From an uncultured Rhodospirillales bacterium (GTDB lineage Bacteria > Pseudomonadota > Alphaproteobacteria > Acetobacterales > Acetobacteraceae), in contig CAIYCW010000015.1 of NCBI GenBank assembly GCA_903924855.1, forward strand, positions 1 to 64,000: DNA of 64,000 bases, written 5' to 3'. Both the position numbers and the translations under genes were made by a program. Below the pieces are notes generated by a model. It searched no databases. It saw only the letters and a list, made by a program, of their open reading frames with translations, and was not told the DNA's origin. Below, piece after piece: positions 945 to 7,718 of this stretch (positions are counted from its first letter, which is position 1; each line of letters opens with the position of its first letter).

Positions 945-1055
945 CGGTTGGGCAACGGCGGGCCGTAGCCCGCCGTTCATTTTGTGCGCCCAAGGGCACT
1001 TGTTAACGGAAGGCCCGCATTCCCCCATCTGCTAGTTCGGAAAATTGACCGTCCG
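945..1055 (-). ncRNA. Candidate tracrRNA, transcribed divergently from cas9
   Basis: Minus strand reads CTAGCAGATGGGGGAATGCGGGCC (1035-1012), which matches the CRISPR repeat (+ orientation CTAGCAGATGGGGGAGTGCGGGCC) with 1 mismatch. It continues TTCCGTTAAC, a GTGCCCTTGGGCGCAC hairpin, then the perfect 10-bp hairpin AACGGCGGGC-TACG-GCCCGCCGTT (977-954). Ends are inferred. Confidence 0.75.
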
Positions 1056-1072
1056 CAAATACCTTGTATGGA
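1045..1072 (+). promoter_or_regulatory. Candidate cas9 promoter (TTGACC-N16-TATGGA)
   Basis: -35-like TTGACC 1045-1050, -10-like TATGGA 1067-1072, cas9 ATG at 1100. Confidence 0.4.
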
Positions 1073-1090
1073 TCAGGGCTTTTCAGTCAA
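1063..1090 (-). promoter_or_regulatory. Candidate tracrRNA promoter (TTGACT-N16-TACAAG on minus strand)
   Basis: Minus-strand -35 at 1090-1085, -10 at 1068-1063, predicted start ~1055 just before the anti-repeat. Confidence 0.45.
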
Positions 1091-1099
1091 CATCCGTCT

Positions 1100-4000
1100 A
1101 TGAGCTATCGCATTTCCATCGATATCGGGGCCAATTCGATCGGCTGGTGCCTACTTTCCTTGGATGAGGATGGCGAGCCGAGTGGCATTCTCGACATGGG
1201 AGTCCGTGTTTTCCCTGACGGGCGAGATCCAAAAACGCAAACGTCCCTCGCAGCAGAACGTCGGTTGGCTCGCGGCATGCGCCGACGGCGGGATCGCTAC
1301 GTTCAGCGTCGAACCGCATTGCTAAATGCCTTAACGCGACTGGGCCTCATGCCTGAGCCAGACGATGACAGGAAGAACATTGCCGGGCTCGATCCTTACC
1401 AACTGCGTCGTGACGCTCTGTTGCGGAAGCTAAGTCCGCACGAACTCGGTCGAGCTATTTTTCATCTCAACCAGAGGCGAGGCTTTCGCAGCAACCGTAA
1501 GACTGACCGCAGCAATGAAGAAGCTGGGAAGATAGCGAGTGCTGCCGACAAGCTCCGGACAGAAATCATCCGTGCAAACGCACCGACACTGGGCTCATGG
1601 CTGGCTGACCGTCACGAGCGTCAATTGTGGGTCAGAGCTAGGTTGGTCGGCACTGGGGCCAAAGCCGCTTACGACTTCTATCCGACCCGCGCGTTGGTCG
1701 AGGAGGAGTTTAACGCGATTTGGGATGCTCAATTGAAATGGTCTCCAAATCTGACGAACGCCATGCGCGAAACCCTGGCGAACATCATTTTTCACCAGCG
1801 CCCTTTGAAGCAGCCTCCCATCGGCAAGTGCTGGCTTGAACCCGCATGCACCAGAGCGCCCAAAGCGCTACCCAGCACTCAGGCTTTCCGTATAGCGCAA
1901 GATCTTGCCCACCTTGCCATTCGTCGTGTTGGAGAGCCGGATCAAGCGCTTGATATTGATCAGATTTCGAGGCTAGCAGCCAAGCTGAACAACGGATTTG
2001 ATCTGTCATTCCACCATGTGCGGAAGGAGCTTGGGCTCGACCAAGGCGTAACTTTTAACCTGGAAAGCAGCTCCCGAGATCAGATCAAGGGAGCAGAAAC
2101 GGCTTCCAGGCTGGCAGGCAGGAAGGGACCATTAGCCTCGATCTGGCCTTCATTGCCCATTGATCAGCGCGATGCGATCGCTTCAGCATTGCTGAATTCT
2201 GACATGCCGTTCGAGACCATCGACGCACTGGTTTCACTGGGTATATCTGAGGCAGATGCTGAATTGGCGGAACGAATTCCGCTACCGGAAGGTCACGCAT
2301 CGCTTTCAACCAAGGCAATCCTGAACGTGCTGCCCCACCTGGAAAGGGGCCTTCGATACTCTGATGCAGTTATTGCAGCGGGCTACGCGCACCATTCGGA
2401 TGACCGGGACGGTGTGATCCACGATCGATTGCCATACTACGGCGCGATCCTCGCATCTCGCCTTGGCACAGGAAGCGGCGAGCCGGACGATCTGGCAGAG
2501 ATACGCTTTGGCAGGGCGCCCAATCCGACAGTCCACGTTGCCCTGAACCAGTTGCGGCACGTGGTGAACGCTCTATTGGACCGATACGGCCACCCAAAGG
2601 AGATCGTCGTCGAGGTCCTCCGTGAGCTAAACCATTCGGCATTCGAACGCCGAAGGATTTCCAAGGAGCAAGAGAAAAACGCCAGGCGCCGGGAGGAGTG
2701 GGCCAGGCAGCTTCAGGAGATCGGCGTAAAGGTAAACGGTGCGAACCTTGCGAGAATGCGCCTGTGGACGGAGCAGGGTGAAGATCCTCGCGAACGCCTC
2801 TGCCCATATACCGGCGAACGCATCTCTCTCACCCGCCTGTTCTCAGCTGAGGTGGAAGAGGATCACATCCTCCCGTTCGCTCAGACGCTGGACGACAGTT
2901 TTGCCAACCGTGTCGTCGTGATGCGTGAGGCGAACCGTGGCAAAGCCAAACAAACGCCGCACGCGGCGTTTCATGCCTCGCCGCAGTGGCCCGAGATTCA
3001 GCAACGAGCGAAACTGCTGCCACCTTCCAAGGCGTGGCGCTTCGCCCCGGACGCAATGCAAAAGTGGCAAGGTGGAAACTCGGATTTCCTCGCTCGCCAT
3101 ATGACAGACAGCGCCTATCTGGCGCGGCTGACGAGGTTGTACCTTCGCGCAGTTTGCGACCCTGACAAGGTCTGGTGCGTTCCAGGCAGGCTGACAGCCA
3201 TGCTCCGAGATGCACTTGGGTTGAACAGCAAGACCGTGCTCGGCAAAGGGGGCGCCCGCAAGGACCGCACAGACCACCGCCACCATGCTATTGACGCCCT
3301 CACGATCGGTCTGATTGACCGGTCATTGCTCAACCGTGTGTCTCGCGCCGCGGGGAGAGCAGAGAACAACGGAAATCGGCTGCTCGATAGGCTGGATGAA
3401 CCCTGGCCAGGGTTCATCCAGGACGTATCGTGCCGAGTTCGACAGATTGCCGTGTCATTCAAGCCCGATACGGCTGCCGTCGGCAGGCTTCACAACGACA
3501 CCGCGTATGGCGCAATTCCAGGTGCCGACGGCCGCATGCCAAATGTTCGGCATCGAGTGCCCATACAATCTCTTGCCGGCTGGAAATCGGACGAAATTGC
3601 CAAGGCGATCGCGGATTTCCGCCTGGCCGCCAAGATATCCAGCGTCGTTTCCGCACATCCTAAAGTGCCCGACCAGGCCGCCGCGCTGTCGTCGATTGCG
3701 CATGATGGAGCAGGTCGTCAGGTGCGGCGTGTTCAGGTTCGCGAACGCCTGGAGGGCGTGCACCCCATTGCCGATCGTCAGACTGGCCGCCCCTACAAGC
3801 TGGTGAAGCTGGACGCAAATCACTGTGCAGAATTCTGGCGTGTCCCTGGTAAGGCCGGTCAGAAGTCCGCCGTGCAGATGAGTGTCGTACCTATGCTCGA
3901 AGCCGCGGCCGAGGAAGTTGCCAAGCACAAGCGGCTCGAGATCCCCGATCGCCGGCCTCATCCTGCGGCCAAGCTTCTGATGCGGCTGCACAAGAACGAT

Positions 4001-4240
4001 GTCCTGGCGATCGGAACCGGCACCGAACGTCGCCTCTATCGTATTGTTAAATTTACGCATGGTGTTGTGACGTGTGCAGAACTGCATGAGGGTGGAGCCT
4101 TGAAGGCGCGAGATGCCGACAGAGGTGACTCTTTCAAATACCTCAATGCATCCAAATCTAAATTATCAGCTGGAAACGCGAGAAAAGTGCTCGTTGACCC
4201 ATCTGGGCACGTCTTTGACACTGGCCCTCTGGTATGGTGA
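1100..4240 (+). CDS. cas9: CRISPR-associated endonuclease Cas9, type II-C-like, 1046 aa
   Basis: RuvC-I SIDIGANSIGWCLLSLD, Arg-rich bridge helix RRLARGMRRRRDRYVQRR, RuvC-II EIVVEVLREL, HNH CPYTGERISL...VEEDHILPFAQTLDDSFANRVV, RuvC-III DHRHHAIDALTIGL. ATG at 1100 preferred over the TTG at 1064 in the ORF track. Confidence 0.97.
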   Translation: MSYRISIDIGANSIGWCLLSLDEDGEPSGILDMGVRVFPDGRDPKTQTSLAAERRLARGMRRRRDRYVQRRTALLNALTRLGLMPEPDDDRKNIAGLDPYQLRRDALLRKLSPHELGRAIFHLNQRRGFRSNRKTDRSNEEAGKIASAADKLRTEIIRANAPTLGSWLADRHERQLWVRARLVGTGAKAAYDFYPTRALVEEEFNAIWDAQLKWSPNLTNAMRETLANIIFHQRPLKQPPIGKCWLEPACTRAPKALPSTQAFRIAQDLAHLAIRRVGEPDQALDIDQISRLAAKLNNGFDLSFHHVRKELGLDQGVTFNLESSSRDQIKGAETASRLAGRKGPLASIWPSLPIDQRDAIASALLNSDMPFETIDALVSLGISEADAELAERIPLPEGHASLSTKAILNVLPHLERGLRYSDAVIAAGYAHHSDDRDGVIHDRLPYYGAILASRLGTGSGEPDDLAEIRFGRAPNPTVHVALNQLRHVVNALLDRYGHPKEIVVEVLRELNHSAFERRRISKEQEKNARRREEWARQLQEIGVKVNGANLARMRLWTEQGEDPRERLCPYTGERISLTRLFSAEVEEDHILPFAQTLDDSFANRVVVMREANRGKAKQTPHAAFHASPQWPEIQQRAKLLPPSKAWRFAPDAMQKWQGGNSDFLARHMTDSAYLARLTRLYLRAVCDPDKVWCVPGRLTAMLRDALGLNSKTVLGKGGARKDRTDHRHHAIDALTIGLIDRSLLNRVSRAAGRAENNGNRLLDRLDEPWPGFIQDVSCRVRQIAVSFKPDTAAVGRLHNDTAYGAIPGADGRMPNVRHRVPIQSLAGWKSDEIAKAIADFRLAAKISSVVSAHPKVPDQAAALSSIAHDGAGRQVRRVQVRERLEGVHPIADRQTGRPYKLVKLDANHCAEFWRVPGKAGQKSAVQMSVVPMLEAAAEEVAKHKRLEIPDRRPHPAAKLLMRLHKNDVLAIGTGTERRLYRIVKFTHGVVTCAELHEGGALKARDADRGDSFKYLNASKSKLSAGNARKVLVDPSGHVFDTGPLVW

Positions 4241-5223
4241 CACCCATCGGTCGCTTCGTTGAAGTGAGCGAGGAGGGGCAATACCTCTCAAAAGAGCGTG
4301 GTTTCATGCTCGTGTCAGCCGGCACGAAATTGGTCGGCAAAGTCCCGTTGGATGACATTGCGGCTGTCATGGCCACTGCCCGTGGCACGACGGTCTCAGT
4401 CTCATTGCTGGCAGAACTGGCCGAGCGCGGAACACCTTTTGTTGTGCCCGGGGCCAACTTTGCCCCGTCGGCCCTGCTTTGGCCGATTGTGGGCCATCAC
4501 GCGGTGTCTCGTCGGATGGAGTCGCAGATCGCCAACAACCGCGCCTTGTCCAAGGCGCTGTGGCAGCAGGTTGTTGCCGCCAAGATCAGACGCCAGGGTT
4601 GGGCCGTGTCGCAATCTGGCGGCAGCTCGGCGCCCTTCGAATTTCTGGCACGCCGGGTCAAGCTGGGCGACGAAGGCAACCTCGAAGCTCAGGCGGCTCG
4701 GCGCTACTGGCCGCTGATGTTTGGGCCGCAATTTCGGCGGGATCGTGATGCGGCGGGCATCAACGCTCTGCTGAACTATGGTTATGCGGTGCTGCGCGCA
4801 ATTGTGGCCCGGGCGCTCTGTGCCACCGGCCTTCACCCCGGGGTTGGCATCTTTCACCGTCACCCAAGCAATCCCATGCCGTTGGCGGATGACTTGATGG
4901 AACCATTTCGGCCGATCGTCGACCTCACAGTCACGCAACTGGTTCGTGATGACATTCTTGAGGTTGGTCCAGTCGCCAAGCGACGTCTGGTTGCAACCCT
5001 CTGGCAAGACCAGAAAACCGCGCAGGGTACAACGCCGTTGATGACAGCCATCTTACGGACCAGCCAGAGTCTTGCGGACAGCTATCAGAGTGGCATCGCC
5101 GAATTACTGTTCCCGTTCACCGATCTTGATGGTGACGACAATGTCCAGAACGCTGAGTGGTTACCGGATCATGTGGATGATTCTGATGTTCGACCTGCCA
5201 GTGATGACGAAAGCCCAGCGTAA
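4234..5223 (+). CDS. cas1: CRISPR-associated endonuclease Cas1 (type II)
   Basis: Cas1 motifs NLEAQAARRYWPLMFG and LHPGVGIFHRHPSNPMPLADDLMEPFRPIVD; overlaps cas9 stop. Confidence 0.95.
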   Translation: MVTPIGRFVEVSEEGQYLSKERGFMLVSAGTKLVGKVPLDDIAAVMATARGTTVSVSLLAELAERGTPFVVPGANFAPSALLWPIVGHHAVSRRMESQIANNRALSKALWQQVVAAKIRRQGWAVSQSGGSSAPFEFLARRVKLGDEGNLEAQAARRYWPLMFGPQFRRDRDAAGINALLNYGYAVLRAIVARALCATGLHPGVGIFHRHPSNPMPLADDLMEPFRPIVDLTVTQLVRDDILEVGPVAKRRLVATLWQDQKTAQGTTPLMTAILRTSQSLADSYQSGIAELLFPFTDLDGDDNVQNAEWLPDHVDDSDVRPASDDESPA

Positions 5224-5479
5224 AGCTGCATCCGGGTTCCGCAATTGGCTGTTGGATAAGGGCTGGGAGATGAGCCAGTTCAGCGTCTATCTGCGCTGGT
5301 GTGGCGGCAAAGAGCAGGTTGAGGCTCGACTGCGGGAGGTTGCTCGTCGTGTGCCTCCGGAGGGTAAGGTCCATGTCGTCACGGTCACCGACAGACAGTT
5401 CGAATCGATGGCGGTCCTCAATGGGCCGGCCAGATCGGCTGGACGAAAGGCACGACCAGAGCAACTTCTGCTCTTCTAG
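5171..5479 (+). CDS. cas2: CRISPR-associated endoribonuclease Cas2
   Basis: MWMILMFDLPVMTKAQRKAASGFRNWLLDKGWEMSQFSVYLR; overlaps cas1 3' end. Confidence 0.93.
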   Translation: MWMILMFDLPVMTKAQRKAASGFRNWLLDKGWEMSQFSVYLRWCGGKEQVEARLREVARRVPPEGKVHVVTVTDRQFESMAVLNGPARSAGRKARPEQLLLF

Positions 5480-5554
5480 CCAGTCTGGTGCAGACCTTAA
5501 ACAGCATGCCAGACCACCACACTCCCATGTTTTCAATGAGATATGTGATGATCT

Positions 5555-6216
5555 GGTCTAGCAGATGGGGGAGTGCGGGCCAACCGCAACTTCAGCATGG
5601 ATGGCCAGTTCTCGGACCTGGTCTAGCAGATGGGGGAGTGCGGGCCAACCGCAACGAAAGCGCGTTCATCGACGCCGACGCGGGGGTCTAGCAGATGGGG
5701 GAGTGCGGGCCAACCGCAACCTTGATCTCATCGTGCACATCGCGACCGCGGTCTAGCAGATGGGGGAGTGCGGGCCAACCGCAACAGGCGAGCGCGCTGC
5801 CCGACCACATGGACCGGTCTAGCAGATGGGGGAGTGCGGGCCAACCGCAACGAAAGCTGATCGGTGTTGGCGAACGCCGTGGTCTAGCAGATGGGGGAGT
5901 GCGGGCCAACCGCAACAGAGGTGCGGCAACGGAGTTATTCGGGAAAGGTCTAGCAGATGGGGGAGTGCGGGCCAACCGCAACATGATCACGCCGCGATAC
6001 CGCTTGCCGCGGGGTCTAGCAGATGGGGGAGTGCGGGCCAACCGCAACTTATGCGGTGCGGGCGGATTATCCTTGCCGGTCTAGCAGATGGGGGAGTGCG
6101 GGCCAACCGCAACAAAGCGCATTTACGCCATTGCCTTTCTCAGGGTCTAGCAGATGGGGGAGTGCGGGCCAACCGCAACCATCGCGGTCCACGCCTTCGA
6201 GCCGACGTGGGTCTAG
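5555..6216 (-). CRISPR. CRISPR array: 10 full 36-bp repeats plus a truncated 7-bp 11th repeat, 10 spacers of 29-30 bp
   Basis: Repeat (+) GGTCTAGCAGATGGGGGAGTGCGGGCCAACCGCAAC at 5555, 5620, 5685, 5750, 5816, 5881, 5947, 6013, 6078, 6144; truncated GGTCTAG at 6210-6216. crRNA strand inferred as minus (GTTGCGGTTGGCCCGC...) from typical type II repeat polarity and pairing with the tracrRNA. Confidence 0.97.
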
Positions 6217-7058
6217 GCGGTGAACTCATAAACCGCCTTCCGGCTCGGCCTCACTCGTGATTCAAGGTTTCCGAATCTGGGAGCCTTGGATGACACGCCG
6301 CCGATATGAGTTGACTGACCATGAGTGGTTGGTCCTTTCGCCTCATCTGCCGAACAAGCCGCGCGGCGTGCCACGTGTTGATGATCGGCGCGTGCTGAAC
6401 GGCATTCTCTGGCGGTTTCGCACCGGCTCGCCTTGGGCGGAAATCCCCGAGCGCTATGGGCCACCGACCACCTGCTACAATCGCTTCGTCCGCTGGCGAA
6501 AAGCAGGGTTTGGGACCGGCTTTTAGAAGCTGTCTCAGCTGCTTACGACGGCGACATTGTGATGATCGATAGCACCTGTGTCCGCGTTCACCAGAACGCT
6601 GCCACGGGAAAAAAGGGGGTGGAGATGGTTGCATGGGACGTTCCCGTGCCGGCCTTACCAGCAAACTCCATGCGCTCGTCGATGCGGAAGGTCGTCCTGT
6701 CACGTTGCAACTGACGGCTGGCCAGATTGCAGATTGTCAGGAAGCCGAGGCGCTGATCGAGACCGTGGGCGAAGGTGATATCGTGTTGGGAGACAAGGGC
6801 TACGACACCAACGCCATCCGCGCCAAACTCGCAGCGAAGAAGGCTTGGGCAAACATCCCACCAAAGACCAACCGCCGTGGAACGTGCCTCTTTTCAAAAT
6901 GGGTCTACCGTCAGCGCAATCTGGTCGAACGCTTTTTTAATCGGATCAAACAGTTCCGAGGGATCGCAACCCGATACGACAAAGATCCGGCTAACTTCCC
7001 GGCCTCCGTCAAGCTCGTGGCAGCAAAGGGATAGTGCCAGAATTTATGAGTCTGCGGC
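6217..7058 (+). mobile_element. IS5-family insertion sequence, ~842 bp
   Basis: Imperfect 16-bp terminal IRs (GCGGTGAACTCATAAA / GCCGCAGACTCATAAA, 12/16), CTAG on both sides (6213-6216, 7059-7062), DDE transposase inside. Confidence 0.88.
6257..7034 (+). CDS. IS5-family transposase spread over three frames (frameshifted or degenerate)
   Basis: YELTDHEWLVLSPHLP...RWRKAG (frame A), VWDRLLEAVSAAYDGDIVMIDSTCVRVHQNAATGKK (frame B), MGRSRAGLTSKLHALVDAEGRPV...GDKGYD...NLVERFFNRIKQFRGIATRYDK (frame C). Confidence 0.85.
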
Positions 7059-7298
7059 CTAGTTCGGAAAATTGACCGTCCGCAAATACCTTGTATGGAT
7101 CAGGGCTTTTCAGTCAACATCCGTCTATGAGCTATCGCATTTCGATCGATATCGGGGCCAATTCGATCGGCTGGTGCCTAGTTTCCTTGGATGAGGATGG
7201 CGAGCCGAGTGGCATTCTCGACATGGGAGTCCGTGTTTTCCCTGACGGGCGAGATCCAAAAACACAAACGTCCCTCGCAGCAGAACGTCGGTTGGCTC
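7059..7298 (+). pseudogene. Truncated second copy of tracrRNA/cas9 promoter region plus cas9 5' end (~57 codons)
   Basis: Matches 1032-1271 over 240 bp with 3 mismatches by eye (about 1117, 1154, 1237); homology stops at GTTGGCTC. Confidence 0.93.
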
Positions 7299-7718
7299 AC
7301 CGCGGCGCTGATCGGCATATCCGTCGGCGGTGGCTCGTTGCTCAGCACGTGGTTGAAACTTGCCTTTGATCGCCAGCGCCCAGAGCTCGCGCTGCATGCG
7401 GTCGCCGCGGCCTCGGCGAGCTTTCCCAGTGGTCATGCGATGCTGTCCGCGGTCACTTATCTCACGGTCGGCGGCTTGATCATGCGCACGCATGCAAGCG
7501 CTGCGGCGAAGCTGTATGTGTTTGCAGTGGCAATGCTGCTGACTGTGGCGATCGGTGTCAGCCGGGTTTATCTTGGTGTCCATTGGCCGACGGACGTGTT
7601 GGCCGGCTGGTGCGCCGGCGCCGCCTCGGCGCTGCTATTCGTGCTCATCGACGTCTGGCTGGAACGCTGGCGCAACATCCGGACGGCGAGCCATCCGCCT
7701 TATCGTGCCAGGTGGTGA
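7299..7718 (+). pseudogene. N-terminally truncated PAP2-family phosphatase
   Basis: KLAFDRQRPELALH...ASFPSGHAMLS...GVSRVYLGVHWPTDVLAGW PAP2 motifs in ORF 7191-7718; the upstream part is replaced by the cas9 fragment in another frame. Confidence 0.75.

What the first reader, a model, noticed from the sequence alone, without database searches (positions are those of the whole stretch)
7059..7298. Second 5' fragment of cas9 with duplicated promoter: relic of a duplicated or recombined CRISPR locus
Seen: 7059-7298 repeats 1032-1271 with 3 mismatches in 240 bp. Homology starts exactly at CTAG, the IS boundary, which in copy 1 lies at the edge of the anti-repeat. The left flank of the IS derives from a repeat and the right flank from the anti-repeat edge, so the matching CTAGs are not a simple insertion into one known site. 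Inference: two IS insertions at CTAG sites, or an IS-adjacent deletion, removed a region between the array and a second tracrRNA-cas9 copy. The mismatches suggest an old duplication or a second allele.
Basis: partly seen in the sequence, partly recalled or inferred. Interest (0 to 1): 0.75.

Follow-up and report, generated by a model that had tools for sequence, protein, structure and literature searches.

The report
Truncated cas9 copy beside CRISPR array
A 240-base second copy of the start of the cas9 gene, with the divergent tracrRNA and cas9 promoters, is a leftover of a duplicated or recombined CRISPR locus; a transposable element joins it to the start of the CRISPR array and a deletion has fused it to an unrelated gene, so it is mostly genomic scar tissue, though it may still supply a promoter to the array.

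Summary
Window 7059-7298 repeats 1032-1271 with 3 mismatches, begins at the CTAG flanking an 842-bp IS5-family element (6217-7058), and stops sharply after cas9 codon 57. It is then joined to the 3' part of a PAP2-phosphatase gene that is intact in a congener. No other cas9, cas1, cas2 or repeat copy exists in the assembly, and none of the related loci read here has a second cas9 start beside its array. First, CTAG is this IS's ordinary target, so matching CTAGs prove nothing; the evidence is that the bases outside them come from two different places (repeat end, anti-repeat edge). Second, the array is read on the minus strand, so the IS and copy 2 sit at its leader end: leader and most of the first repeat are gone, and copy 2 carries the conserved tracrRNA promoter pointing, through the IS, into the array. 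Best reading: recombination between IS copies at two CTAG sites of two slightly different CRISPR alleles, followed by a deletion into PAP2. Assembly chimerism cannot be excluded without reads. This is an interesting anatomy of a known process, not a new system.

The parts
1007..1035 (-). anti-repeat of tracrRNA, copy 1 (tracrRNA continues to about 954)
   Evidence: complementary to the repeats; tail and terminator hairpin conserved in relatives; folds with the repeat
1032..1271 (+). copy 1 of the repeated segment: CTAG, divergent tracrRNA/cas9 promoters, first 57 cas9 codons
1100..4240 (+). cas9, type II, full length, 1046 aa, RuvC and HNH motifs intact
   Evidence: TIGR01865, E 3e-167
4234..5223 (+). 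cas1, type II (NMENI)
   Evidence: TIGR03639, PADLOC Cas1_II
5072..5479 (+). cas2 (ORF; conserved domain starts at residue 34)
   Evidence: TIGR01573, PADLOC Cas2_II
5555..6216 (-). CRISPR array: ten identical 36-nt repeats; the leader-end (right) repeat is cut to CTAGACC by the IS
6217..7058 (+). IS5-family element, 842 bp, flanked by CTAG on both sides (6213-6216, 7059-7062), transposase frameshifted near 6510
   Evidence: PF13340 and PF01609; single copy; ends and CTAG target compared with relatives
7059..7298 (+). copy 2: CTAG, tracrRNA promoter (minus strand), cas9 promoter, first 57 cas9 codons
7085..7118 (-). predicted tracrRNA promoter in copy 2 (TTGACT, 18 nt, CAAGGT), pointing left through the IS into the array; coordinates approximate
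   Evidence: conserved position in relatives L043-L047
7293..7718 (+). 3' part of a PAP2-phosphatase gene, 5' part missing, joined to cas9 copy 2 in a different frame
   Evidence: PF01569; 84% to the intact gene of G005

Best explanation
Copy 2 is the stub of a second tracrRNA-cas9 locus (a tandem duplicate, or the allele of a close relative). Inferred history: the IS, which targets CTAG, had inserted at two CTAG sites of this CRISPR locus in different chromosomes: in the leader-end repeat of one, and at the edge of the anti-repeat of the other. A crossover between the two IS copies joined [copy 1 locus + array + repeat end GTCTAG] to [CTAG + promoters + cas9 of the other allele]. That explains the intact anti-repeat in copy 1, the hybrid flanks and the allelic mismatches together. 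A later deletion with a TGGC microhomology removed the rest of the second locus and the 5' part of PAP2. Present state: cas9, cas1, cas2, tracrRNA and ten repeats look intact, but the array has lost its leader and most of its first repeat, so new spacer uptake at that end should be blocked; the tracrRNA promoter in copy 2 points, across the IS, into the array. Shown: the duplication, the breakpoints, the loss of the leader-end repeat, the IS target. Strongly supported: the strand of the array. Inferred: order of events, the IS-IS crossover, the functional effects.
For: 237/240 identity and sharp ends; IS flanks drawn from repeat and anti-repeat edge; CTAG as the general target of this IS and its density in the array; PAP2 intact in G005 and cut here, with microhomology; PAP2 5' part and its upstream genes not found elsewhere in G000; no second cas9, cas1, cas2 or array elsewhere; no such copy in relatives, so it is a local and derived event; array and tracrRNA orientation (PMC7038990).
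Against: No chromosome with the IS at the anti-repeat CTAG has been seen. Fusion at CTAG before the IS arrived, or an IS-adjacent deletion in a tandem duplicate, gives the same final sequence. The structure comes from a draft assembly and was not checked with reads.
Confidence: 0.6

Rival explanations
1. Tandem duplication first by another route, a single IS in the leader-end repeat, then an IS-adjacent deletion (intramolecular transposition into the anti-repeat CTAG) and a second deletion into PAP2.
For: Same final sequence; one IS copy only.
Against: Needs one more event and separate divergence of the copies to explain 3 mismatches; no remnants of a duplicate elsewhere.
Confidence: 0.15
2. 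Fusion first: array repeat and anti-repeat joined through their shared palindromic CTAG, and the IS inserted into that CTAG afterwards as a simple insertion.
For: The IS is flanked by CTAG on both sides, as in a simple insertion.
Against: The IS would have to pick the one junction CTAG among about a dozen in the array region, and the joint would have to fall on CTAG by chance.
Confidence: 0.1
3. Assembly chimera: two strains (or two IS copies) with the IS at different CTAG sites were joined through the IS by the assembler.
For: 154-contig draft, 84.5% complete; a 141-base contig overlap indicates a short-read k-mer assembly; the IS (842 bp) is longer than that.
Against: A two-way branch at the IS normally breaks the contig; the lost partner halves (rest of leader repeat, IS at anti-repeat) are absent from the assembly. 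The cas9-PAP2 joint does not involve the IS and would still be a real cas9 stub.
Confidence: 0.15
4. Promoter capture under selection: the segment is kept because the tracrRNA promoter now drives the array in place of the lost leader.
For: Promoter orientation and conservation; no minus-strand terminator-like site inside the IS; no mismatch in the 68 non-coding bases of copy 2.
Against: 842 bp of IS lie between promoter and array. Type II-C repeats can carry their own promoters (PMC7038990), so no outside promoter may be needed. 0 of 68 versus 3 of 172 changes is not a meaningful difference.
Confidence: 0.08

Closest known systems
IS insertions that inactivate CRISPR-Cas loci (PMC10359306)
   Same: An IS has entered a CRISPR-Cas locus and impairs part of it
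   Different: That work is on insertions inside cas genes; here the cas genes are intact, the hit is at the leader-end repeat, and the insertion is tied to a partial duplication of the tracrRNA-cas9 region
Type II-C CRISPR-Cas9 locus (tracrRNA-cas9-cas1-cas2-array) as in Neisseria meningitidis and Clostridium cellulolyticum (PMC7038990)
   Same: Gene order, Cas9 size, no fourth cas gene, array opposite to the cas genes, repeats with promoter-like 3' ends in relatives
   Different: Leader and most of the first repeat replaced by IS and a truncated copy of the cas9 start
tracrRNA plus cas9 5' stub in another genus of the same family (G205:C70, L052)
   Same: Anti-repeat, promoter region and about 62 cas9 codons followed by an unrelated gene
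   Different: No IS on that contig and no full-length cas9 in that assembly; probably an independent decay

Membership tests
Type II-C CRISPR-Cas | Cas9 with RuvC and HNH nuclease motifs | tested here: met
   TIGR01865, PF13395, PF18541; motifs aligned with relatives
Type II-C CRISPR-Cas | cas1 and cas2 present, no csn2 or cas4 between cas2 and the array | tested here: met
   ORFs and families of 4234-5555; next feature is the array
Type II-C CRISPR-Cas | tracrRNA with anti-repeat and downstream hairpins | tested here: met
   no Rfam family matched
Type II-C CRISPR-Cas | Array with intact leader-end repeat | tested here: not met
   repeat cut to CTAGACC by the IS; this concerns the state of this locus, not its subtype
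IS5-family insertion sequence | DDE transposase of the IS5 type and conserved ends | tested here: met
   frame is broken
IS5-family insertion sequence | Flanked by a duplicated target from one site | tested here: inconclusive
   CTAG on both sides, but the bases outside come from two places
Promoter capture of the array by the tracrRNA promoter | Transcript from copy 2 across the IS into the array | not testable with these tools
   no expression data

The most novel reading that the evidence does not exclude
IS-mediated recombination replaced the array's own leader by a duplicate of the tracrRNA promoter, so guide RNAs and tracrRNA are now made from twin promoters while spacer uptake is frozen: a naturally rewired, non-adapting CRISPR-Cas9 locus.
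Probability: 0.1. Interest if true: 0.55.

Novelty: new member of a known kind. Interest (0 to 1): 0.32.

Why it matters
It shows base by base how an insertion sequence whose target (CTAG) lies in every CRISPR repeat and at the anti-repeat edge can rearrange a whole CRISPR locus: repeats that contain an IS target make arrays hot spots, and IS copies at repeat and anti-repeat provide ready-made crossover points. If the promoter reading is right, it would be a natural test of whether a type II-C array needs its leader for expression.

Tried and rejected
A functional second Cas9 or an in-frame Cas9-PAP2 fusion: rejected, the frames differ and the cas9 frame ends at 7369. A conserved family trait (cas9 start as array leader): rejected, relatives with readable arrays have no such copy, and those with sequence beyond the leader end share no recognisable leader. 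Other remnants of a second locus elsewhere in the genome: none. Spacer matches to phages: one chance-level hit, E = 0.2. Viral-contig scans returned no answer. Rfam found no tracrRNA family. Dating from the three SNPs: not possible; only the L19V site could be polarised. Whether the similar cut point in G205 (about codon 62) means a shared mechanism: two cases, different joints, taken as coincidence.

Full report
What was checked. The segment 7059-7298 is a direct repeat of 1032-1271 with three mismatches at 7144, 7181 and 7264. Identity to copy 1 is 19-20 of 20 bases in every bin up to 7298, then drops to 7/20. Copy 1 lies between the tracrRNA and cas9 of a complete type II-C locus: tracrRNA on the minus strand (anti-repeat 1007-1035), cas9 1100-4240, cas1 4234-5223, cas2 to 5479, then ten identical 36-nt repeats with 29-30-nt spacers. 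RuvC and HNH motifs of Cas9 are intact. Copy 2 has the whole intergenic region and 57 codons of cas9.

Which way the array runs. The anti-repeat pairs with the minus-strand repeat 5'-GTTGCGGTTGGCCCGCACTCCCCCATCTGCTAGACC. The tracrRNA tail (hairpins and terminator) follows on the minus strand and is conserved in the relatives aligned. A crRNA repeat joined to the tracrRNA folds at -90.7 kcal/mol against -45.5 for shuffles; the repeat/anti-repeat duplex would form in either orientation, so it is the conserved tail that fixes the strand. Most relatives, and less perfectly the window, have a hairpin at the cas2-side end of the array, as expected for a terminator there. A type II-C array read opposite to its cas genes has been shown by RNA-seq (PMC7038990). 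The leader end is therefore the right end, where the IS and copy 2 are. The IS leaves only CTAGACC of the leader-end repeat.

The IS. The 842-bp element (6217-7058) is of the IS5 family (DUF4096 and DDE domains) and has one copy in the assembly. The four plasmid relatives whose ends I read all have CTAG on both sides; the copy in congener G001 has TTAG and CTAG. CTAG occurs 22 times in 64 kb, 11 of them in the array and one at the anti-repeat edge of each copy. The matching CTAGs are thus expected of any insertion. What is not expected is that the context is a repeat on the left (GT-CTAG) and the anti-repeat edge on the right (CTAG-TTCGG). The transposase frame is shifted near 6510 compared with a relative, so this copy is probably immobile.

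The right-hand break. From about 7293 the sequence matches a PAP2-phosphatase gene of congener G005 at 84%, starting inside the gene; G005 has the intact 262-codon gene. Four bases (TGGC) are shared at the joint. The PAP2 5' part and the kinase and phosphoesterase genes before it in G005 are not found in G000. A deletion is the plain reading, though G000 is incomplete. The fused frames differ, so there is no Cas9-PAP2 protein.

Relatives. Of 250 family genomes searched with full Cas9 and 398 with its first 65 residues, none but G000 shows a second cas9 start of the same subfamily. In the seven relatives whose arrays I could read, the tracrRNA-cas9 start region has no second copy. Four of them (L044, L046, L047, L048) have sequence beyond the leader end, and there a full or nearly full repeat follows a non-conserved flank. 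One genome of another genus (G205:C70) has a stub of anti-repeat, promoter and about 62 cas9 codons joined to an unrelated gene, without an IS on the contig. Truncation of cas9 shortly after its start has therefore been seen twice; I take the similar length as coincidence.

Mechanism. The shortest account that explains the intact anti-repeat of copy 1, the hybrid IS flanks and the three mismatches at once is a crossover between two IS copies at different CTAG sites in two slightly different chromosomes, followed by a deletion into PAP2. Fusion at CTAG before the IS arrived, and IS-adjacent deletion in a tandem duplicate, give the same final sequence. The order of events is inference. The one mismatch that can be polarised (L19V) looks derived in copy 2, which fits a non-functional stub.

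Assembly. G000 is a 154-contig draft with 84.5% estimated completeness. C19 ends with the first 141 bases of C15, the signature of a short-read assembler with k = 141 (inference). A chimera through the IS is possible, but both missing halves would have to be lost from the assembly, and none is found. The longest exact run shared by the two cas9 copies is under 90 bases, so the copies themselves should be resolved at that k.

Function. The predicted tracrRNA promoter (TTGACT, 18 nt, CAAGGT; similar elements at the same place in L043-L047) is complete in copy 2 and points left, through the IS, into the array in the crRNA sense. The consensus scanner did not call this promoter, since its second hexamer departs from TATAAT; the case rests on conservation. 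No terminator-like site is seen on that strand inside the IS. Whether this promoter feeds the array is untested. With the leader and most of the first repeat gone, new spacers should not be added at that end; this is inference from established type II adaptation rules.

Verdict. Most likely a real scar of IS-driven recombination in a type II-C locus, with one testable twist (promoter capture). IS damage to CRISPR loci is already documented (PMC10359306).

Noticed in passing
window:3382-3433: A near-perfect 52-base palindrome inside the cas9 coding sequence (core CCTGGATGAACCCTGGCCAGGGTTCATCCAGG); the protein there aligns with relatives without an insertion, so it is not an inserted element.
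   Followed up: partly
G000:C19:18700-24836 (L038:6722-12837), left neighbour of the window's contig: Two tyrosine-recombinase genes in a row (363 and 610 aa) and a large CcrB-like serine recombinase next to the CRISPR locus, suggesting a mobile-element neighbourhood.
   Followed up: partly
window:1-141 and G000:C19:24696-24836: Exact 141-base overlap of two contig ends; probably a k-mer assembly signature, useful for judging joins.
   Followed up: partly
L052:190-530 (G205:C70): Another cas9 5' stub with tracrRNA anti-repeat, cut after about 62 codons and joined to an ArsC-like gene, in a different genus.
   Followed up: partly
L043-L050, array repeats: In several relatives each repeat ends in a TATACT/TACACT/TAAACT/TATAAC hexamer 17 nt after TTGGCC or a similar hexamer, consistent with repeat-embedded promoters; the window's repeat ends TAGACC, a weaker match.
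   Followed up: partly
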